Shown here: positions 5,731 to 20,869 of the stretch, piece by piece
How positions within the stretch are numbered: position 1 is the stretch's first letter
Layout of the letters: each line of letters begins with the position of its first letter
Assembly (NCBI RefSeq): GCF_001426525.1
Contig: NZ_LMEW01000031.1
Coordinates: 1-64,000, forward strand
Reading direction: 5' to 3'
DNA: 64,000 nucleotides
Source of the DNA: Massilia sp. Root133
GTDB lineage: Bacteria > Pseudomonadota > Gammaproteobacteria > Burkholderiales > Burkholderiaceae_D
Program-made: the position numbers and the translations under genes
The notes under the pieces: model-generated
Database searches by the model: none
The model's input: the letters and a program-made list of their open reading frames with translations, nothing else
Told to the model about the DNA's origin: nothing

Positions 5731-6375
5731 ATGAACCCCGTCCCCCTCGCAGGCCGCCACGTGCGGCTCGAACCTTTTGACGAGACGCTCCGTGCACCCG
5801 TGCGCAGCGCGCTCGATTGCGACCCCGACGCGTGGCGGCTGTTCGCGATCAACGGGCAGGGCGACGGCTTCGACGGCTTCTGGGACAGTCTCAACGCGCA
5901 GGTGGCGCAAGGCGGCTGGATCGCCTACGCCATCCGCGCCGTCGCGACCGGCGCCGTCGTCGGCACCACCAGCTTCCTGAACATCAAGCCCACGCGCCAG
6001 ACCGTGGAAATCGGCGGCACGTTCATCCATCCGGACGTGCGCTCCACGTCCGTCAACGCGGAAGCGAAATACCTGATGCTGGCGCACGCGTTCGGGAGCG
6101 GCATGCGCCGCGTCGAGCTGCTGACGGATGCGCGCAACGTGCGCAGCCAGGCCGCCATCGCGAAACTGGGCGCCGCGCGCGAAGGCGTGCTGCGGCGCGA
6201 AAGAGTCACCTGGACCGGGCACGTGCGCGACAGCGTGCTGTTCGCGATCACCGACCTCGACTGGCCGGACGTCCGGACGGGTCTGGCGCGCCGGCTCGGC
6301 GTCACCGCTCCGGCAGGCCCATGCGGGTTCCGTGACGCCGGAACGCCCCGGGCGTGCAGCCATATTCTTCCTTGA
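5731..6375 (+). CDS. GNAT family N-acetyltransferase (RimJ/RimL-like)
   Basis: A 214-residue acetyltransferase of the RimJ/RimL type (GNAT fold over about residues 10-175), with the RHVRLEPFDE start, the strand EIGGTFIHP, the NAEAKYLML acetyl-CoA region and the ARNVRSQAAIAKLGA helix that closes the fold. The last 20 or so residues (after RLGV) run through the 3' end of the convergent AraC gene, a 74-bp tail-to-tail overlap. They look like read-through coding rather than a conserved tail. The acceptor substrate is unknown. Confidence 0.85.
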   Translation: MNPVPLAGRHVRLEPFDETLRAPVRSALDCDPDAWRLFAINGQGDGFDGFWDSLNAQVAQGGWIAYAIRAVATGAVVGTTSFLNIKPTRQTVEIGGTFIHPDVRSTSVNAEAKYLMLAHAFGSGMRRVELLTDARNVRSQAAIAKLGAAREGVLRRERVTWTGHVRDSVLFAITDLDWPDVRTGLARRLGVTAPAGPCGFRDAGTPRACSHILP

Positions 6376-7474
6376 ACAGCTTGTTGAAGTACGAGACGTT
6401 CGCATAACCGACCGCGAACGCGATGTCCGCGATGGGCATGCCGGCCTGGTCGGTCAGCAGCCGCGCCGCTGCCGTCAGCCGCAATTGATTGACGTAGGCC
6501 GTGAAGGTCATGCCGAGCTCCTGCTTCAGGATCTCGTTGATCTTGTCGCGGTCCGCGCCGATCCGCGCCGTCACCGTGCCCATGTCCAGGTCGGGGTTCA
6601 TGTAATGGGTGCCGATGTAGTGCAGGATGGCGGCCTTTTCCTTGTCCCTGAACGGTTCCAGGGTCAGCTGCCGGTAGGCGACGAACTGCCTGTCGTTGTT
6701 CAGTTGCGACTGCAGGCTGGCGACGAGCGCCCGCGCGTGTCCGTGCAGGAACCAGGCGGCGAACGCGCCCCAGCCGATCACCGAGATGACCGCCAGCGCG
6801 ACGGCGTAGCGCTCGTCGTGGCCGTGCAGCGTGAATTCGCTGATCTCGACCCTGGAATCGGTGTCGCGCGGACTCTTCTGGGTGACGCCGAACACGAATC
6901 TGCCGACCTGCCCCAGATCGTAGGACTGGCGCGCCGGGTCGACCTTCGCCGTCTGGAACCACCATGGAGGAATCGTCAGGCGGGTCAGGTCCAGCGATAC
7001 CGGCGTTCCCTGCTCGCTGCAGGAGAAGTAGGTGAGCGGCGACGGGTAGGTATGAAACAGGCCCGGCGTCGAGATGCCCGGGGCGAACGTGGACAGGCTG
7101 AACAGCAGTGAATTGGCGGGCGCGCATCGGGCGACGAACGTGACGGTGGTGTACGTCGACAGGTCCGCCGGTCCCGCCTTGGCCTGGCCATCTTCCAGCA
7201 GCATTTCGGCCGCCACGTAGGGATAACTGGCGGCGGGCGTGACCCGGAAGTCGAAGCGAAGCGCAGCGCGGCCCGGTTCCAGGATGCGAATGGTCGACGT
7301 GCCACCCAGGATGGCGTCCGTGATGACGTCCGGGCGCCAGTGCACGCCGCCTCGTTCCCTGGGAATGAGCGAGGCGGACGGGTGGCTTTGGCGGATGCAG
7401 AACCAGGCGACCAGCGCATCGGCCACCAGGACGAGGATGAGCGCAACCAGCGCTTTCTTGTAGAACTCTTGCAT
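6302..7474 (-). CDS. Membrane-anchored AraC family regulator (copy 1)
   Basis: A 390-residue protein with an unusual order. A transmembrane helix (about residues 6-26) is followed by an extracytoplasmic region of about 180 residues rich in alternating strands (RFDFRV, LSTYTTVTFVA, SLDLTRL, VEISEFTLHG). A second helix (AVALAVISVIGWGAFAAWFL) leads to a cytoplasmic AraC DNA-binding domain ending SYFNKLFKEEYGCTPGAF. The outer region looks like a jelly-roll, carbohydrate-binding-type fold. This suggests a one-step transmembrane regulator sensing an external ligand. It is a clear paralogue of the gene at 9048-10181. Both flank a deacetylase-like lipoprotein gene transcribed in the same direction. 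The start at 7474 (MQEFYKK) is chosen by alignment with the paralogue. Confidence 0.85.
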   Translation of the reverse strand: MQEFYKKALVALILVLVADALVAWFCIRQSHPSASLIPRERGGVHWRPDVITDAILGGTSTIRILEPGRAALRFDFRVTPAASYPYVAAEMLLEDGQAKAGPADLSTYTTVTFVARCAPANSLLFSLSTFAPGISTPGLFHTYPSPLTYFSCSEQGTPVSLDLTRLTIPPWWFQTAKVDPARQSYDLGQVGRFVFGVTQKSPRDTDSRVEISEFTLHGHDERYAVALAVISVIGWGAFAAWFLHGHARALVASLQSQLNNDRQFVAYRQLTLEPFRDKEKAAILHYIGTHYMNPDLDMGTVTARIGADRDKINEILKQELGMTFTAYVNQLRLTAAARLLTDQAGMPIADIAFAVGYANVSYFNKLFKEEYGCTPGAFRRHGTRMGLPER

Positions 7475-7487
7475 GGGCCTATGTAGT

Positions 7488-7508
7488 GATTCCCCGCGCG
7501 GGGGAATC
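7488..7508. terminator. Perfect inverted repeat between deacetylase and AraC genes
   Basis: GATTCCCC and GGGGAATC form an 8-bp stem with a 5-nt loop, located between the stop codon at 7521 and the AraC start at 7474 on the minus strand. It could be an attenuating hairpin or an operator for the regulator it precedes. There is no T-run on the minus strand, so a true intrinsic terminator is uncertain. Confidence 0.4.
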
Positions 7509-7520
7509 ATTTTATACGCG

Positions 7521-8924
7521 TCACTGCGTCCAGCTCAGCGACTGCGTATCCAGCGACACCTCGTAGTAGCCGCGGCGATCCCAGGCCAGGGGCTTGCCGT
7601 TCTGCGACAGCGTGCCGCCGTTCACCACGACGCGCAGCTTGCGGCCCGACGGGAAGTTGGCCGGCAGCGTCCAGCGCCAGGTCGTCACGCCGGCACTCGC
7701 CGTGGGCGTGGCCGCCTGCAGCAACTGCTGGCCGCGCCAGTAGGCGCCGACGTTGACCACGCTGTCGATCCATACCGTGCCCAGCGCCTTCGCATGGGCC
7801 ATGTTGCCGGTGACCGCGCCGATGTCCACGCCGCCGCCCCAGTCCTGCGTGGTGGGCAGCAGCGTGTGGAACAGATAGATCATCCAGCGGCCCTGGTTCG
7901 CGGCGCTGTCGAATTTGGACGGGTCGCCCGGGAACTCGGCGAGCGGCAGGTTCTGCGCGTCGCTGCCCGTGCCGGGCGCCACCATGCCCGGCCACACGCC
8001 GCGCGAGACGAGGAAGCGCGATGCGGCCGCGGCCTTGTAGTCCGTGTCGCCGAACGGGTAGGCGGACGTCCAGACGGCGGACTGTCCGAGCTTCGTGCGG
8101 ATGTAGACGCCGGTGTCGTCGAACTCGGCCCCGGCGCTGCCCAGGCTTGCCGGGCAGGTATTGGGATCGTTGTCGGTCAGTTCCGCGGCCCGGCAGTGGT
8201 GCGTCGTGTGGTTGCCGATTTCCGAACCCTGCGCGACCGCGTCCTTCCACGTGGCGTCGTAGTTGGGATACCAGTTGGCGACCGGATTGACGTAATAGGT
8301 GACGCGGACGCGCTGCGCCTTCAGGTCCGGATAGTGATCGATCTGCGACGGCTGCGAGTCGTCGAAGGTATAGGACAGGGCGGCCTTGAAGCCGGCCCAG
8401 TCGAGCACGCGCAGCCCGGGCTGCCCCGTGGTGCCGCCGGGGCGGACCACGTCGCTCGCCGCCAGCGGCAGCGGCAGGCCGGCCGCGCCGCCGTCGTTCC
8501 ACGGAAGCACTTGTATCTTCAGCGGGGCCTGGCTGGTGCGCTGGCCGTCGCTGACCTGTACGCTGAGGTCGTAGTCGTTGTGGCCATCGGCATCGCCGGG
8601 GTGCGCGGTGTCCGGCGCCTGGCGGAACGAGAGGGCGCCGGTCGCGGGATCGATCTTGAAGCGCGCCGCATCGCTGCCGGCGATGGACCACGTGGCGGTG
8701 CGCCCGCCGGCCAGGGTCGCCGTCGGGATCAGGAAGGTCGCGGTCAGGCCTTCGTGGACGCTCAAGCTGGCCGGCATCGACAGGACGGGTGCCGCTGCGG
8801 CCGCGCCGCCGGCGCCCGCCTGGACGTCGGGCGCGTTGATGACACCGCTGCCCCCGCTGCAACCGGACAGACATGCCGCGAGCAGGGCAGGGATGGCGGC
8901 TCGGATGTGGTATTTCCTGTTCAA
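7521..8924 (-). CDS. Lipoprotein with cadherin-like and polysaccharide deacetylase-like domains
   Basis: A 467-residue predicted lipoprotein with lipobox LSGC (Cys22). An Ig/cadherin-like region (about 50-140; TWSIAGSDAARFKID, YDLSVQVSDG) precedes a NodB-like region with SYTFDDSQPSQ, where the Asp pair matches the TFDDG motif, and EIGNHTTHH, where the His matches the H-x(3-4)-H metal site. A small C-terminal beta domain follows. The start is probably TTG at 8924, preceded by GGAGG. It may remove acetyl groups from a surface or external polysaccharide. The usual Gly after the Asp pair is replaced (DDS), so catalysis needs testing. The two membrane AraC genes on either side probably control it. 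Confidence 0.75.
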   Translation of the reverse strand: MNRKYHIRAAIPALLAACLSGCSGGSGVINAPDVQAGAGGAAAAAPVLSMPASLSVHEGLTATFLIPTATLAGGRTATWSIAGSDAARFKIDPATGALSFRQAPDTAHPGDADGHNDYDLSVQVSDGQRTSQAPLKIQVLPWNDGGAAGLPLPLAASDVVRPGGTTGQPGLRVLDWAGFKAALSYTFDDSQPSQIDHYPDLKAQRVRVTYYVNPVANWYPNYDATWKDAVAQGSEIGNHTTHHCRAAELTDNDPNTCPASLGSAGAEFDDTGVYIRTKLGQSAVWTSAYPFGDTDYKAAAASRFLVSRGVWPGMVAPGTGSDAQNLPLAEFPGDPSKFDSAANQGRWMIYLFHTLLPTTQDWGGGVDIGAVTGNMAHAKALGTVWIDSVVNVGAYWRGQQLLQAATPTASAGVTTWRWTLPANFPSGRKLRVVVNGGTLSQNGKPLAWDRRGYYEVSLDTQSLSWTQ

Positions 8925-9047
8925 GATGGGCTCCTCCAATCGTTGTTCTTGGCCCTCGATCGTAGGCATCCGCCCGGCGGCTCTCTAACGCTTATTGCGG
9001 AAATTCCCGGTGTGTGCAGAAATTTGCATGAATTTCCTCAGATTGTT

Positions 9048-10181
9048 TTAATGGCCTGAAGGCATTTCCAGCCGGCGCGCCAGGCTCTTGAATTCCCTGG
9101 GAGAACAACCGTATTCTTCCTTGAACACCTTGTTGAAATACGAACCATTGGCATAGCCGACCGAATACGCGATTTCCGCCACGGTTGCACCGGCCTGGTC
9201 GGTCAGTAATCTGGCGGCCTCGGTCAGCCTCAGCTTCTTCAGATAGCCGGCGAACGACATGCCGAGTTCCGTCTTGAGCACGTCATTGACCTTGCCGCGG
9301 GTCGCGCCCGTGCCGGCGGCGACAGCGTCCAGGTCCAGTCCGGCCTGCGCGTAATGGGTGGCGATGAAGCGCAGGATGTCGGCCTTTGCCTTGTCCTCGA
9401 ACCGTTCGACGGTCAACTGGCGGTATGCCACGAACGACAGATCCTTCCTGAGCCGGGCTGCCACCGTCGCCCCGAGGGCGCGCGACTGCGCCCGGAAGAA
9501 CCCGATGCCGAAGGCGGTCCAGCCGGCCACCAGGACCGTCGCCAGCGCGACGAGGTAGCGGTCGTCGCGGCCATGCAGCGTGAGATCGCTGATCTCGACC
9601 TGCGCATCGAGCCCGTGCGGGCTGTACCGGCTGGCGCCGAATTCCAGCTTGATGACACGGTCCAGCGCATACGACCGGCGTGCGATGTCGACGTGTTCGG
9701 CGTCGTACCACCAGTCCGGAATGGACAAACGGGTGAGATCCAGCGAGACCGGCATGCCTTTCTCGTTATAGGAAAAGAAAGTCATGGCGGGCTTGGCGAC
9801 ACCTTCGTCGACCACGGTGATATTGAGGATCAGCGAATTGGCGGGCGTGCATTTCGCGAGGAAAGAAACGGTCGAGTACCTCGACAGATCCGCCGTCCCG
9901 TCGAACTGCAACGCCGCCCACGCCCAGGGATGCGGGATGGCGTCCGCTACCCGGAAGTCGAAGCGGAGCGATTGCCGCGTGGCGTCCTGGATGCGTACCG
10001 TCGACGCGCCGCCGAACGGGGCGTCCGTGATGGCGGCGGCGTGCCAGTGCGGCGCCGTGCGATCCCGCGGCAGGAGCGACGCGGATGGCGCGCTGCGATG
10101 GATGCAGAAACCCGCGATCAGCGCGTCGGCGGCCAGCAGCAGCACGAACGCGCCGAGGGCCTTCCTGTAGAAGTGCTGCAT
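9048..10181 (-). CDS. Membrane-anchored AraC family regulator (copy 2)
   Basis: A 377-residue paralogue of the 6302-7474 product with the same plan: a first transmembrane helix (residues 6-26), an extracytoplasmic strand-rich domain (about 30-205; LRFDFRV, DLSRYSTVSFLAK, SLDLTRLSIPDWW, VEISDLTLHG), a second transmembrane helix, and an AraC domain ending SYFNKVFKEEYGCSPREF. The outer domain is more diverged than the HTH domain, as expected if the two copies detect different ligands. Its start codon comes 1 bp after the stop of the cupin-AraC gene, so the two are probably translated together. The downstream deacetylase-like lipoprotein is the likely target. Confidence 0.85.
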   Translation of the reverse strand: MQHFYRKALGAFVLLLAADALIAGFCIHRSAPSASLLPRDRTAPHWHAAAITDAPFGGASTVRIQDATRQSLRFDFRVADAIPHPWAWAALQFDGTADLSRYSTVSFLAKCTPANSLILNITVVDEGVAKPAMTFFSYNEKGMPVSLDLTRLSIPDWWYDAEHVDIARRSYALDRVIKLEFGASRYSPHGLDAQVEISDLTLHGRDDRYLVALATVLVAGWTAFGIGFFRAQSRALGATVAARLRKDLSFVAYRQLTVERFEDKAKADILRFIATHYAQAGLDLDAVAAGTGATRGKVNDVLKTELGMSFAGYLKKLRLTEAARLLTDQAGATVAEIAYSVGYANGSYFNKVFKEEYGCSPREFKSLARRLEMPSGH

Positions 10182-15894: not shown

Positions 15895-18657
15895 ATGGCC
15901 GATCTGCAAACTGCTCAAACCCGTCATCAGGCTCTCATCGGACAGCAAGACAGACTCTTAAAGCTCACTGTCGGTCTTGGTAAAGACATCCTTCTCCCGC
16001 AACGTGTCGTTGCCCATGAACGGTTAGGCAGAAGTTACGAGTATGCGATTGATGTTATATCCATACGTGATGATATCGACCTGAAAAATCTTATTGCTCA
16101 TCCTGTTACTCTTTGGGTAAAGCAGGTCAATAGGAGCTATTTGCCGATCAGCGGCTATGTGCATACAGCGATGCGCCTTGGAAGCGACGGTGAGTTAACG
16201 TTTTACCAAATAAAGTTCGCACCTTGGCTTCATTTTCTTAAATTCCGCAAGGATACGCGAATTTGGCAAGACAAGAAAGCAACCGACATTCTCGCCGAGG
16301 TGTTCTCTGTACACCCACAAGCGCGTGGGAATTTTCGCTTTGATCTGACCGAGCCGATCTCACCGCGTTCCTATTGCACTCAATACGAAACTGACTGGAA
16401 TTTTGCACATCGTTTAATGGAAGAGGAAGGCTGGTACAGTTATCACGAGCAAAAAGCCGATGGTACCGGTCACGTGCTCGTTGTTACGGACACGACACAT
16501 TGCCTCAAGCCCGTCGAGCCAAAGCAGGTTTACTTCCATCGAGGAAGCACCGTGGACGAATTGCATAAAATTGTCCATTGGAGCACAAACCTTAGTTTGA
16601 AGTCGACTCAGGTGACTACCAGAACTAGCGACTACAAAGCTCCAGGCTACCAAAAGCAGAGCAACATGGCTGTACTTCCAGAGCACGGTAGACTCCCCAG
16701 TCAACTGGAGATCTACGAATATACCGGTGCTTATACCTATTCGAAGCAAGAACAGGGGGACAAACAGTCACGTATTCGCGTCGAAGAATGGGAGTCCAGC
16801 ATAAACCGGTTCTAAGGGGTCTCTGGGATACGTTCTCTGCCGGTGGGTAGCTGGTTTACGCTGGAAGGTCATCCCGCACATCGGGACAGTAGAGAGGAAG
16901 ACCGTCAGTTTCTTGTCGTCGCGGTCGAGTGGAGTATTGAAAACAACCTTCCGCTAGCAAGTAATGGCAGAGAGTTTCCAGGCAGCCTTTTCGAACAAAC
17001 TGAGGCGTTTAAATCTGCAATCGGGCTTGACATCCGGCGAACTCAGTCAAGCAGAGAGGAACTGATAAGAGACGGATACACTGGCCATTGTTTTAATCGG
17101 TTTGAAGTCCAGCGTCGCATCGTTCCTTTTCGCAGTCCGGGAGAACATTCTAAGCCAGGACTACATCCGCAGACTGCCATCGTCGTTGGACCCTCGGGAG
17201 AAGAAGTCCATACTGATTATCTCAACCGGGTAAAGGTTCGGTTCCATCGGGATCGGCTAAACCCAAGTGATGAGAGGGCTTCCTGCTGGGTGCGTGTCAG
17301 TTACTCCAACGCCGGTCAAGGATGGGGCGGTCTCAACGTGCCCCGCATTGGTCAGGAGGTCATTGTTACGTTCTTGGGCGGTGATGCCGACCGTCCCGTT
17401 ATTACCGGTAGGCTATATAACCAGGAGCAGATCCCGCAATGGCATACCAATGGCAGGCTTTCAGGCTACAAAACTAAGGAATTTAATGGCAATGGGTTCA
17501 ACCAACTTGTTCTAGACGACACGACCAGTCAAAACAGAATTCAGCTCTATAGTACGAATAGCCATGCGCAACTAAACCTAGGTTATCTGATCACTCAACG
17601 CGGCAATGAGCGAACCCGGTTTTTCGGATCAGGGTTTGCGCTGAGTACTGACGATTTCGGCGCTATCGTAACGTACAAGGGCTTATATATCAGCACCTTT
17701 GGCCGTCCCGGAGCGCAAGGCACACAACTCGATGCAACGGAAGCCTCCAGCCAGCTGAAGAACGGTGCATCGCTAGCTAAAAATCTATCCGAGAGCGCAT
17801 CGAAGGCCGGAGCCGAGCCTCTTGCCGGGCAGGAGGCACTTGGGAATTTCATTGACGCGACACATGACCGTTACGAAGGTCCGGGACAGAGCGATGCAAA
17901 TCGTTTCAAAGAACCGATCCTGCTGGCAGCATCCCCTTCCGGAATCGGGCTCGCGAGCGCCAAGGGAGCACATGTTCATGCCAGTGATCAGGTGACTCTG
18001 TCGTCTGGTAAGGACACTAATATCGCTGCGGGGAAAAGCCTCCTTGTTAGCGTCGCAGAAAAGATTAGTTTGTTTGCTTCGAATGCCGGTATCAAATTGT
18101 TTGCGGCGAAGGGTAAAGTCGAAGTGCAAGCGCAAGCGAACGACCTCGACCTTATCGCAGAAAAAGTCGTGCGTTTGTTATCGACGACATCCCGCATCGA
18201 AGTTCACGCAAAAGAAGAGGTGGTCATATCGGCGGGTGACTCCTTCATAAAAATCAACGCCTCGGGCATCACCAATGGAACGTCTGGCAAGTGGATTTCA
18301 CATGCGTCAACGCACAGCTTCCAACGACCCGCGACGAATTCTTATGTCATGCCGCATTTGCTGAAGGCCGATCTTCAAAAAACGGACCTTGAGTTTCGCC
18401 ATTTGACTGATTGGGGTGCGCCCCTAGCCGGGGCCGCTTATAAAGCGACGTTGAGCGATGGCAGCGTTCGCAAAGGGACACTCGATGCCTTGGGTATCGC
18501 ACGCATAAGCGACGTACCTGCGGGTACTACTGCGAAGGTCGAATACGACTACAAGCCGTTGCAGGTCAGCGCATTTGTAGCAACGGAATTACACGAGGAT
18601 ATCCGTCAATTGCTGAACTGGGCTACAGGCAGCAAAACCCATCAAGGTGGTGCATGA
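15895..18657 (+). pseudogene. vgrG: VgrG (T6SS spike) interrupted by one in-frame stop codon
   Basis: A full-length VgrG coding frame of about 920 codons with a single TAA at codon 307 (16813-16815). Upstream are the gp27-like domain (YEYAIDVIS, SYCTQYETDWNFAHRLMEEEGW). Downstream, in the same frame, come GVSGIRSLPVGSWFTLEGH, the gp5/OB domain (VRVSYSNAGQGWGGLNVPRI), the beta-helix/DUF2345 region and a transthyretin-like C-terminal domain (LEFRHLTDWGAPLAGAAYKA) that often holds cargo. In homologues the interrupted position reads FYGVSG, so one base change at a Tyr codon explains the stop. Reinitiation at GTG 16843 is possible. The gene ends with an ATGA overlap into the effector gene. It could be a real nonsense mutation, a suppressed stop, or an assembly error. 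Confidence 0.85.
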
Positions 18658-20264
18658 GCCAAGATCGTTCGTCACCGGAGCAACATACCGTCCTCGCGGA
18701 TGCTTGGGGACATGTCGTCGGGGGCATGGAATGGCTTCAATCAGTGCTCTTTGGCGAATTCGCCGACCATCGACCACTGTCTGCCGTCGTCGCCGATATG
18801 CTGGTCAGCTTTATTCCAGGTGTAGTCATCGTCACAAGCGCGCGGGACGCGGTCGCCGTGATTTTGCGCTTGGCGACCCATCCAGAAAGGCGCGAAGAAC
18901 TCATGGAGTGGGTGCTCCTGTGTGCGTGTTTGATCGTCATTGCCCTACCGATCGCGATGGCTGCGGGTAGTGCCGTAGCGCTAGGGGTAGGTGCGGTTGT
19001 CGGCGGAGTGGCTGGCTCGGAACTCGGCGCTGCGTTACGGGCCGTAATGCTTTTGCTGATCAAAGAGGCCTCGAAACTCGTGGAGCTTTTGCGCTTCATG
19101 CAAAAGTTCATGAAGGGGGACATCCTGAAATTTTTGCGAGCCATTCAGTTCGCTAAATATGAAAAACCTCTAATCCAGGCAATTAGCAAGATAACTGGGA
19201 AACTCGTCGAGCTCGTAAAGGCGCTGCGCGCGCATCTGGAGAGTCTAAGCTATTTTGAAAGAGTCAAAGACACAATCATCAATCTGGCAGAGTGGGAGAA
19301 GAAGTTCTACAATGTCCAGCAGGACGCGCTTAAACAGGTACCGAAAGCATTGGCAGAGCTCGACGCTAGGCTCGCGAAAGTGCTGACGCAGACCGCCCTG
19401 AAAGAAGGCCATACAGTCGCCGCCGGTGTGCTGACAGAAAAAAGCCTCGTAGCACTACCGACGAAACAAAGAGTGAAAGACACTCTCGGGAAGGTGCTTG
19501 AAAAGGGTGGGCGGAAAATACCTGAAACAAGGGGCAAAGCAGCGTCTCATGATGGCGCCGTACGGACGTCTAATCCTGATTCAAAATTAAGCGGGCAACT
19601 CAAAAACAACCCCGAGCCAATCAAGTCGCCCGGAGAATCACCGAATACGAAGAAGCAGGCGGTGTCCGACGCTACTCTAGCGGTAGAACGCGAACGGATT
19701 GCCCAGTTGTCCAAGGAAGGGAAGATTGATGAGGCACGGACCATTTTGCAGCCCCATTTGGACGCGGCAAAGAATGCAGAAACCGTGGCAGAGAAGGAAG
19801 TTGCCATGAAGGCTATAATTGCAAGATTGGACGTAACGTCGGATAAAGAAAAGATGTTCTGGTCAGGTAATAAGGAGCTGGCAGCAAAGATCGCAACCGA
19901 AAAAGGTAAAATTATTTTGGAGCAAACTTCGGGCGGGAAAGTAATTGACGATTGGGAGGATCTGAACAAAACCTTTTCCTGGGATCCAAAGGATATAGGG
20001 CCTCATGGTTGGAATTTTTGGGGTGACGTCTCTGCGGAGTATGCCAAGGATGCAGCTGGGGAAATTGAAATTATCCAGGACATTGGAAAATTTCCGGCTG
20101 GTGGTCCCACATGGAGAACGAGGGAGTGGACGACGATTATTGACGAGGGTAAGGTCACGTCAATGAAGATTTATGGAATGGATAAATCGGGTAATATCTT
20201 AAAAGCGATGACAATCGAGCCTGATAGCACGATTGCTAAAGAATTATTCGGAGGAGTACTATGA
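18654..20264 (+). CDS. Putative T6SS effector with membrane segments and ADP-ribosyl-cyclase-like C-terminus
   Basis: A 536-residue protein whose ATG overlaps the vgrG stop (ATGA). Residues 45-72 and 86-135 are hydrophobic and Ala/Gly-rich, likely membrane-insertion segments. Residues 135-250 are helical, 290-345 form a Pro/Ser/Lys-rich linker, and the last 135 residues form a separate domain. That domain has FWSG (402-405), an LEQTSGG loop with Glu423, WGDVSAEYA with Ser460, and a late Glu491 in WRTREW. This order resembles NAD-consuming ADP-ribosyl-cyclase-like toxin domains. Context (VgrG before, small acidic protein after) supports an antibacterial effector. The enzymatic assignment is an inference from motif order. 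The gene is far more AT-rich than the chromosome around it. Confidence 0.65.
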   Translation: MSQDRSSPEQHTVLADAWGHVVGGMEWLQSVLFGEFADHRPLSAVVADMLVSFIPGVVIVTSARDAVAVILRLATHPERREELMEWVLLCACLIVIALPIAMAAGSAVALGVGAVVGGVAGSELGAALRAVMLLLIKEASKLVELLRFMQKFMKGDILKFLRAIQFAKYEKPLIQAISKITGKLVELVKALRAHLESLSYFERVKDTIINLAEWEKKFYNVQQDALKQVPKALAELDARLAKVLTQTALKEGHTVAAGVLTEKSLVALPTKQRVKDTLGKVLEKGGRKIPETRGKAASHDGAVRTSNPDSKLSGQLKNNPEPIKSPGESPNTKKQAVSDATLAVERERIAQLSKEGKIDEARTILQPHLDAAKNAETVAEKEVAMKAIIARLDVTSDKEKMFWSGNKELAAKIATEKGKIILEQTSGGKVIDDWEDLNKTFSWDPKDIGPHGWNFWGDVSAEYAKDAAGEIEIIQDIGKFPAGGPTWRTREWTTIIDEGKVTSMKIYGMDKSGNILKAMTIEPDSTIAKELFGGVL

Positions 20265-20869
20265 CGCTGGCGTTTGAAAAATTTATCAAACAATATGAGA
20301 TGACGGGCAGAGAAAAGGCCGACGGCTATAGTCAGGATGTATTTGTGGGGTTGGACGAAAGTGAGAAAAAAAAGGTGTTCGAATTATTGATGGCGGAGAT
20401 GCCGTGGGGGATTGAGTGGCTATTTTTTCTTGAGCCAAAAAAAGCGCTGACGGTAGCAAAGCAGCGGGAGGGTGAATTGCGCGGGAAGCCTTATGGCGAT
20501 GCATATATGTTTCAACAGCAAATTGTCAAATACTCTGGTGACTTGCTTTATCAGAAACACATGATTGACGATTATGCTGGTTATTCGGAAAGTGTAAGGC
20601 CACTTGTCGTGGATGCTATATATCGCACGCCACAAAACGAAGATACCATTTCGTTTTTCAAACATGTTGTTCTGACAGAAGTCAGTGGAAGCGCAATTGC
20701 TAGGGCAAGTCGGCACTTGCTAGACGCCTTAAAAGTTCCCCAGGCTAGCGAAACCGAAAAGGGGAATTACAGGGCGATGGTTGCTGAACTGCGCAGCGAC
20801 GACACGCCAACGAAGCTGAGGGCGCTTGCCAAACTTGAGAAATATAGGTCACTTAGCAGTCAACCGTAA
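20261..20869 (+). CDS. Putative immunity protein for the upstream effector
   Basis: A 202-residue, AT-rich soluble protein without signal peptide or membrane segment. It is mainly helical with HEAT-like pairs (SESVRPLVVDAIYRTPQNED, LRALAKLEKYRSL). I do not recognise a named family. Its ATG overlaps the effector stop (ATGA) with GGAGG a few bases upstream, the classic toxin-immunity arrangement, and composition changes back to GC-rich right after its stop. The function is inferred from position only. Confidence 0.6.
   Translation: MTLAFEKFIKQYEMTGREKADGYSQDVFVGLDESEKKKVFELLMAEMPWGIEWLFFLEPKKALTVAKQREGELRGKPYGDAYMFQQQIVKYSGDLLYQKHMIDDYAGYSESVRPLVVDAIYRTPQNEDTISFFKHVVLTEVSGSAIARASRHLLDALKVPQASETEKGNYRAMVAELRSDDTPTKLRALAKLEKYRSLSSQP

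What the first reader, a model, noticed from the sequence alone, without database searches (positions are those of the whole stretch)
6302..10181. Twin transmembrane AraC regulators flank a polysaccharide deacetylase-like lipoprotein
Both regulators have one helix, an external strand-rich jelly-roll-like domain, a second helix and a cytosolic AraC domain. Direct transmembrane one-component AraC regulators are rare. The external domains have diverged more than the DNA-binding parts, suggesting two different glycan signals controlling one enzyme.
Basis: partly seen in the sequence, partly recalled or inferred. Interest (0 to 1): 0.6.

Follow-up and report, generated by a model that had tools for sequence, protein, structure and literature searches.

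The report
Membrane glycan sensors flanking a deacetylase
Two membrane-spanning gene regulators, each with an outward-facing domain predicted to fold like a known sugar-binding module, flank a secreted polysaccharide-deacetylase gene; they belong to a larger set of such regulators beside plant-fibre-degrading genes, and the same sensing domain has also been joined to other kinds of signalling protein.

Summary
RegB (9048-10181), a CE4-like deacetylase lipoprotein (DAC, 7521-8924) and RegA (6302-7474) lie in that order on the minus strand; the unit is kept in five relatives. Each regulator has two membrane helices, a strand-rich outer domain and an AraC domain.

The pair is not isolated. The genome has nine such regulators. 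At one cut-off, 6 of the 7 outside the window have a glycoside hydrolase among the nearest two genes per side, against 1 of 16 soluble AraC genes. The same outer domain also sits on histidine kinases, diguanylate cyclases and a LytTR protein. A ~75-bp box precedes DAC in 6 of 6 genomes; copies precede GH74 xyloglucanase genes in Duganella (strong) and in G026 (weak).

Best reading: periplasmic oligosaccharide sensors switching on their neighbours. 'Two different signals' is neither shown nor excluded. Membrane-bound AraC regulators beside cellulases were reported in Saccharophagus (2008); the sensor domain and its several outputs are the newer part.

The parts
9048..10181 (-). RegB, two-helix membrane AraC regulator, 377 aa
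   Evidence: ORF; HTH_18 3.4e-21; helices
10101..10157 (-). RegB membrane helix 1 (residues 9-27)
   Evidence: hydropathy
9555..10100 (-). RegB outer (periplasmic) domain, residues 28-209; lacks a short loop and the second of two family cysteines
   Evidence: alignment; fold not predicted separately
9498..9554 (-). RegB membrane helix 2 (residues 210-228)
   Evidence: hydropathy
9087..9320 (-). RegB AraC-type DNA-binding domain (residues 288-365)
   Evidence: Pfam
8976..9054 (-). Conserved box before DAC with AAATT..TGCA-like repeats; candidate regulator site; its far end overlaps the RegB stop codon
8983..8988 (-). Candidate -35 (TTAGAG)
   Evidence: read in the alignment; inference
8959..8964 (-). 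Candidate -10 (TACGAT), 18 bp from the candidate -35
   Evidence: read in the alignment; inference
7521..8924 (-). DAC, CE4-like polysaccharide deacetylase lipoprotein with TTG start
   Evidence: Polysacc_deac_1 1.3e-7; Cys22, TFDD, HTTHH, YLFH invariant in 6 of 6 orthologues; activity not tested
6302..7474 (-). RegA, two-helix membrane AraC regulator, 390 aa
   Evidence: ORF; HTH_18 5.1e-24; helices
7394..7450 (-). RegA membrane helix 1 (residues 9-27)
   Evidence: hydropathy
6806..7393 (-). RegA outer (periplasmic) CBM11-like domain
   Evidence: prediction pLDDT 75.7, pTM 0.78; CBM11 Z 16.2
6746..6802 (-). RegA membrane helix 2 (residues 225-243)
   Evidence: hydropathy
6335..6568 (-). RegA AraC-type DNA-binding domain (residues 303-380)
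   Evidence: Pfam

Best explanation
RegA and RegB are one-component transcription activators anchored in the inner membrane. A periplasmic CBM11-like domain binds an oligosaccharide of a plant cell-wall polysaccharide; binding changes the dimer through the second helix, and the cytoplasmic AraC domains act at the ~75-bp box next to the -35 region, switching on DAC and, probably on the same transcript (46-bp gap), regA, which would be positive feedback. In relatives the box also serves a GH74 xyloglucanase gene, so the likely signal is a xyloglucan-type oligosaccharide. Shown by computation: architecture, predicted fold, conserved unit, conserved box, linkage of the family to glycoside hydrolases. 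Inferred: ligand binding and identity, box binding, activation rather than repression, shared transcript.
For: CBM11-like fold. Unit in 5 of 5 relatives; full-length DAC in 5 of 62 genomes of the genus, own included, each time between the two regulators. Box before DAC in 6 of 6 genomes, and before GH74 genes in L035 (34.9 bits) and L218 (12.5 bits), 0 of 2000 shuffles each. Glycoside hydrolase near 6 of 7 other family regulators against 1 of 16 soluble AraC genes, p 0.0005, or 0.004 with neighbouring regulators counted once. Both regulators under constraint, dN/dS 0.16-0.43 by domain.
Against: No binding or expression data. The fold is a prediction from 12 sequences (five models, mean pLDDT 59.2 to 75.7) and is also shared with NDUFAF1/CIA30 (Z 14.2), which is not a sugar sensor (recalled). 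Ligand residues were not compared. The L218 box is weak (E 0.12 over 1.47 Mb). No box at 8 intergenic stretches of other family loci. By eye, without a Pfam scan, no glycan genes beside the 4 kinase/cyclase loci of this genome that carry the same domain. The deacetylase's own glycan is unknown (model failed).
Confidence: 0.6

Rival explanations
1. Two inputs, one output: RegA and RegB bind different glycans, and either or both together turn DAC on.
For: Both kept as separate 100/100 clades in six genomes; the outer domains are only 51% identical and the RegB of three genomes (window, L031, L032) lacks a short loop.
Against: The extra outer-domain divergence is no larger than between orthologues; RegA and RegB are more alike outside than the average family pair.
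Confidence: 0.35
2. RegA and RegB act as a heterodimer or in sequence on one ligand, with each AraC domain reading a different half of the long box.
For: AraC domains unusually different for the family (60% against a 66% mean); the box is long with several repeats; both regulators always accompany full-length DAC in the genus sample.
Against: In G026 one RegB-sister regulator alone precedes a GH74 gene with a weak box, so a partner may not be needed; no interaction data.
Confidence: 0.3
3. The outer domain is a dimerisation or protein-contact domain with a CBM-like fold that no longer binds sugar, and the linkage to glycan genes reflects another signal such as a transporter or cell-wall state.
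For: NDUFAF1/CIA30, a CBM11-like protein of another function, ranks second; some kinase and cyclase members show no glycan genes nearby by eye.
Against: Glycoside-hydrolase linkage of the AraC branch; the next ranks are CBM30, CBM29 and other sugar-binding modules.
Confidence: 0.2
4. The box is an unrelated promoter element, and the regulators act elsewhere.
For: No binding shown; the box was not found at other family loci.
Against: Among all stretches held (1.47 Mb) hits at E under 0.2 lie only beside RegA/RegB-clade regulators: six DAC cassettes, GH74 next to RegA in L035 and, weakly, GH74 next to a RegB sister in L218.
Confidence: 0.15

Closest known systems
Membrane-bound AraC regulators of Saccharophagus degradans 2-40 (PMC2386152, passage read)
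   Same: AraC domain with membrane segments (two in Sde_0324 and Sde_3613); beside cellulase and xylanase genes; a lineage-specific expansion (13 of 16 paralogous); hypothesised there to sense extracellular polysaccharides.
   Different: Other organism; several have 6-7 membrane segments; whether the outer domain is related could not be tested (no sequence at hand). No paired regulators or box mentioned in the passage.
CBM11 of Clostridium thermocellum Lic26A-Cel5E (PDB 1v0a, 6r31)
   Same: Predicted fold over nearly the whole domain.
   Different: About 11% identity; a module of a cellulase, not a membrane sensor; ligand residues not compared.
Hybrid two-component systems (HTCS) of Bacteroides (PMC10766802, passages seen; PMC3404733 and PMC11253607, search listing)
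   Same: Membrane glycan sensors with AraC-type output, expanded, next to their polysaccharide loci.
   Different: RegA and RegB have no kinase or receiver domain: one component, one step.
RsgI anti-sigma factors of Clostridium thermocellum (search listing with abstract starts)
   Same: Membrane proteins sensing polysaccharides outside the cell (carbohydrate-binding sensor modules are recalled).
   Different: They release a sigma factor; the DNA-binding part is a separate protein.

Membership tests
AraC/XylS family of transcription regulators | C-terminal AraC-type double helix-turn-helix domain | tested here: met
   HTH_18 above cut-off in both (84.8 and 75.8 bits, cut-off 33.6)
Membrane-bound AraC one-component regulators (Saccharophagus type) | Membrane segments plus AraC domain in one protein, without kinase or receiver domain | tested here: met
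   Hydropathy and Pfam; topology not tested by experiment
Membrane-bound AraC one-component regulators (Saccharophagus type) | Genes for polysaccharide degradation adjacent | tested here: met
   6 of 7 other family loci against 1 of 16 controls; the window pair itself flanks a deacetylase
Membrane-bound AraC one-component regulators (Saccharophagus type) | Outer domain homologous to that of the Saccharophagus proteins | not testable with these tools
   No Saccharophagus sequence was at hand; see next steps
CBM11 | CBM11 beta-sandwich fold | tested here: met
   Predicted model of RegA: Foldseek rank 1, Z 16.2, rmsd 3.3, 167 aligned
CBM11 | Recognition by the sequence profile of the family | tested here: not met
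   No CBM_11 match at E<=10 in 20 members; no PDB sequence match at E<=10
CBM11 | Glucan-binding residues and binding | not tested
Hybrid two-component systems | Histidine kinase and receiver domains in the same chain | tested here: not met
   No such domain in RegA or RegB
CE4 / NodB polysaccharide deacetylases (for DAC) | Polysacc_deac_1 profile above cut-off | tested here: met
   32 bits, cut-off 23.1
CE4 / NodB polysaccharide deacetylases (for DAC) | Metal-binding Asp and two His (motifs recalled as T-F-D-D and H-(S/T)-x-x-H) | tested here: met
   TFDD and HTTHH invariant in 6 of 6 orthologues
CE4 / NodB polysaccharide deacetylases (for DAC) | Deacetylase activity on a glycan | not testable with these tools
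   Structure prediction failed (pLDDT 31.5)

The most novel reading that the evidence does not exclude
The outer domain is an undescribed, portable periplasmic glycan-sensor module with a CBM11-like fold. It has been joined to AraC, LytTR, hybrid-kinase, kinase and diguanylate-cyclase outputs. Its AraC branch radiated in Massilia and relatives into an array of one-component sensors, each serving its own plant-polysaccharide locus, so that one cell could read related glycans into gene activation, phosphorelay and c-di-GMP at once.
Probability: 0.45. Interest if true: 0.7.

Novelty: new variant of a known kind. Interest (0 to 1): 0.5.

Why it matters
If true, each regulator is a one-protein route from an oligosaccharide in the periplasm to a promoter, with the neighbouring enzymes hinting at its ligand. 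Nine such regulators in one genome, and a conserved promoter box at one locus, would make glycan perception in Massilia-like bacteria directly testable and give parts for glycan biosensors. No Pfam family was recognised for the domain, so naming it would let a sensor be assigned to kinases and cyclases that now show none.

Tried and rejected
The DAC model failed (pLDDT 31.5) and was not used, so its substrate stays open. DAC had no PDB sequence match at E<=1. Searches of the sensor domain found no PDB sequence and only single-member Pfam matches at E 0.12-0.29, judged chance; one kinase relative matches CIA30 at E 0.012, below cut-off. The box model gave no match at 8 intergenic stretches by other paralogues, so a family-wide operator was rejected. 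A search of the own genome with the core repeat (up to 3 mismatches) gave 14 hits, only the window site exact and the next with 2 mismatches, against 2 for the reversed control pattern; no further target was claimed. A weak box hit in L088 (E 0.35) is not before a gene of interest and was set aside. A recent tandem duplication of RegA and RegB was rejected (one search leaves their join with the C24 regulator unresolved). Outer-domain divergence as proof of two signals was rejected. A 23-bp palindrome between DAC and RegA (7487-7509) is seen in three of six genomes and was not taken as part of the mechanism. Paper searches for 7TMR-DISMED2, Massilia with xyloglucan or AraC, CBM11 sensors and Paenibacillus AraC regulators gave nothing on the point as judged from titles and abstract starts; this does not prove absence in print.

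Rows dropped before counts: in the soluble-AraC control, locus L197 (no gene call over the hit), the two XylR genes beside family members and the AraC genes inside the window were left out, so 16 loci with 62 neighbours were scanned; its cut-off (1e-20) hides weaker matches. In the domain tree, rows under 150 residues, identical domains, and L153, L161 and L164 were left out. L031-L034 appear to be the same genomes as G015, G052, G025 and G004 (identical scores), so they are not independent evidence.
Full report
What is there. On the minus strand, in this order, lie RegB (9048-10181), a deacetylase lipoprotein (DAC, 7521-8924) and RegA (6302-7474; the family's N-terminus puts the start at 7474, not 7510). 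Pfam finds only helix-turn-helix DNA-binding domains in the regulators, and in DAC a Polysacc_deac_1 domain above and a cadherin domain below its cut-off. DAC starts with TTG after an AGGAG motif in all six genomes aligned. Cys22, TFDD, HTTHH and YLFH are invariant in 6 of 6 orthologues; before Cys22 stands LSG, LEA or LAG, so lipidation is likely but less canonical in two. The window lies in an unnamed 7.1-Mb genome of 36 contigs; the named genomes with the closest RegB are Massilia, Telluria and Duganella.

Topology. Hydropathy gives helices at residues 9-27 and, depending on the protein, between about 210 and 254; 18 of 19 homologues show both at the threshold used, L090 misses the second. 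Two cysteines of the outer domain are kept in 18 of 19 AraC members; the window's RegB has lost the second. The seven kinase, cyclase and LytTR members looked at carry another pair, 11 residues apart. This fits an oxidising periplasm but does not prove it.

Fold. The RegA outer domain was predicted from 12 sequences: pLDDT 75.7, pTM 0.78, nearly all strands. Foldseek ranks CBM11 first (6r31, E 1.7e-7). VIA-align 2, on Foldseek's own candidates, gives CBM11 Z 16.2 (1v0a, rmsd 3.3, 167 aligned), the complex-I intermediate with NDUFAF1 14.2, CBM30 13.7 and CBM29 12.2. Sequence searches recognise no known family.

The unit is conserved. Of 56 loci found with RegB, five match over the full length, and all five hold RegB-DAC-RegA in the same order; the outer neighbours tested differ in three of them. 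Full-length DAC is found in 5 of 62 genomes of the genus (own included), each time between the two regulators; 32 further genomes have only partial matches. In the full-length tree each regulator forms its own 100/100 clade of six with the same inner order; in the outer-domain tree RegA is sister to the regulators of a GH42/GH5 locus (100/97), not to RegB. dN/dS between close orthologues is 0.20-0.43 in the outer and 0.16-0.33 in the DNA-binding domains.

The divergence argument. RegA and RegB are 50.5% identical outside and 61.2% in the AraC domain. Orthologues show the same trend (about 73% and 80%). Over the nine paralogues the means are 41.5% and 66.3%, so this pair has rather different DNA-binding domains and rather similar outer domains. 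Two ligands remain possible but divergence does not point to them.

A family beside glycan loci. The genome has nine such regulators. The flanks of the seven outside the window hold (family numbers of arabinofuranosidase, galactosidase and fucosidase models recalled): GH42 and GH5; TonB receptor and GH43; GH5, a Sde182-like protein, GH51 and GH43; two TonB receptors, GH3, a BD-FAE-type esterase and GH29; GH97, GH31, an esterase, GH42 and XylR; GH27 and GH51; XylR, TonB receptor, a protein matching GH42/GH35 weakly, and GH51. Control: among the nearest two genes on each side, at E<=1e-20, a glycoside hydrolase occurs at 6 of 7 family loci (the seventh only at 2e-9) and at 1 of 16 soluble AraC loci. 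Fisher p is 0.0005, or 0.004 with neighbouring regulators counted once. In genomes with one AraC-type copy the regulator lies between a GH3 and a GH39 gene with CE2 and transporter genes near (Pfam-checked in L138; alike by gene starts only in L136, L137 and L140, and on one side in L139); in L135 it follows a xyloglucanase gene (PDB match E 4e-101 to a chain named xyloglucanase).

The box. In Duganella (L035) a second copy lies before a gene next to RegA whose product matches PDB xyloglucanases (E 1.9e-89 to 6p2n; GH74, label recalled): 34.9 bits, 0 of 2000 simulated stretches. In G026, which has no DAC match, a RegB-sister regulator is followed by a xyloglucanase-like gene (E 5.7e-101 to 6p2n) with a weak copy: 12.5 bits, E 0.12 over 1.47 Mb, 0 of 2000 simulated stretches of that gap. 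Eight gaps at other family loci have none. I take the box as the regulators' site and xyloglucan-type glycans as the likely signal; neither is shown.

A portable sensor. In this genome the same outer domain sits on three hybrid kinases (two in tandem) and three diguanylate cyclases (two in tandem); in relatives on a LytTR protein and another kinase type; and all 9 domains found in other families of the class stand on GGDEF proteins. Nearby glycan genes were not recognised by eye at the four kinase/cyclase loci of this genome; these were not scanned. Prevalence, own genome counted: 22 of 62 in the genus, 28 of 294 in the family sample (6 of 44 genera), 8 of 398 in the phylum sample, 1 of 369 in the class sample. 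In the last three only 8 to 11 candidates per genome were scored, so they are lower bounds. In a tree of 76 domains the 47 AraC carriers form one side of a 100/100 branch; hybrid kinases and the LytTR protein branch among cyclases; four output changes are needed, the least that five output types allow.

Known or new. Membrane-bound AraC regulators expanded beside cellulase and xylanase genes were reported in Saccharophagus degradans in 2008, two of those tabulated with two membrane segments (PMC2386152, passage read). That makes the arrangement a known kind. The CBM11-like module without a Pfam entry, its several outputs, and paired regulators with a conserved box are the variant. The listings showed no description of this domain; apart from passages of two papers only listings were seen.

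Noticed in passing
L132:3828-8389 and L133:4803-7537 (own genome): Two hybrid histidine kinases in tandem and two diguanylate cyclases in tandem, all four with the same outer domain as RegA and RegB.
   Followed up: partly
L151:781-2151: The same outer domain on a membrane LytTR-type DNA-binding protein (Pfam LytTR 1.5e-21), a second kind of one-component regulator.
   Followed up: partly
L155-L160, L162, L163: A kinase type with the same outer domain and a C-terminal region after the kinase that Pfam did not recognise in L155.
   Followed up: no
L164:1279-3075: An amidohydrolase with a C-terminal CIA30 domain (2.8e-9) that the outer-domain model matches weakly, a possible bridge to the CIA30 superfamily.
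   Followed up: no
window 7487-7509: A 23-bp palindrome in the 46-bp gap between DAC and RegA; counterparts in L031 and L032, not in L033-L035.
   Followed up: partly
L092:3206-4835 (own genome): An arabinofuranosidase gene that appears split in two ORFs; whether it is a real break or an assembly error was not tested.
   Followed up: no
L031:7420-7821: A small called ORF inserted between RegB and DAC in one relative, leaving the box before DAC in place.
   Followed up: no
window 16843-20869: ORFs that look like a type VI secretion VgrG gene and followers (recalled resemblance, not searched).
   Followed up: no
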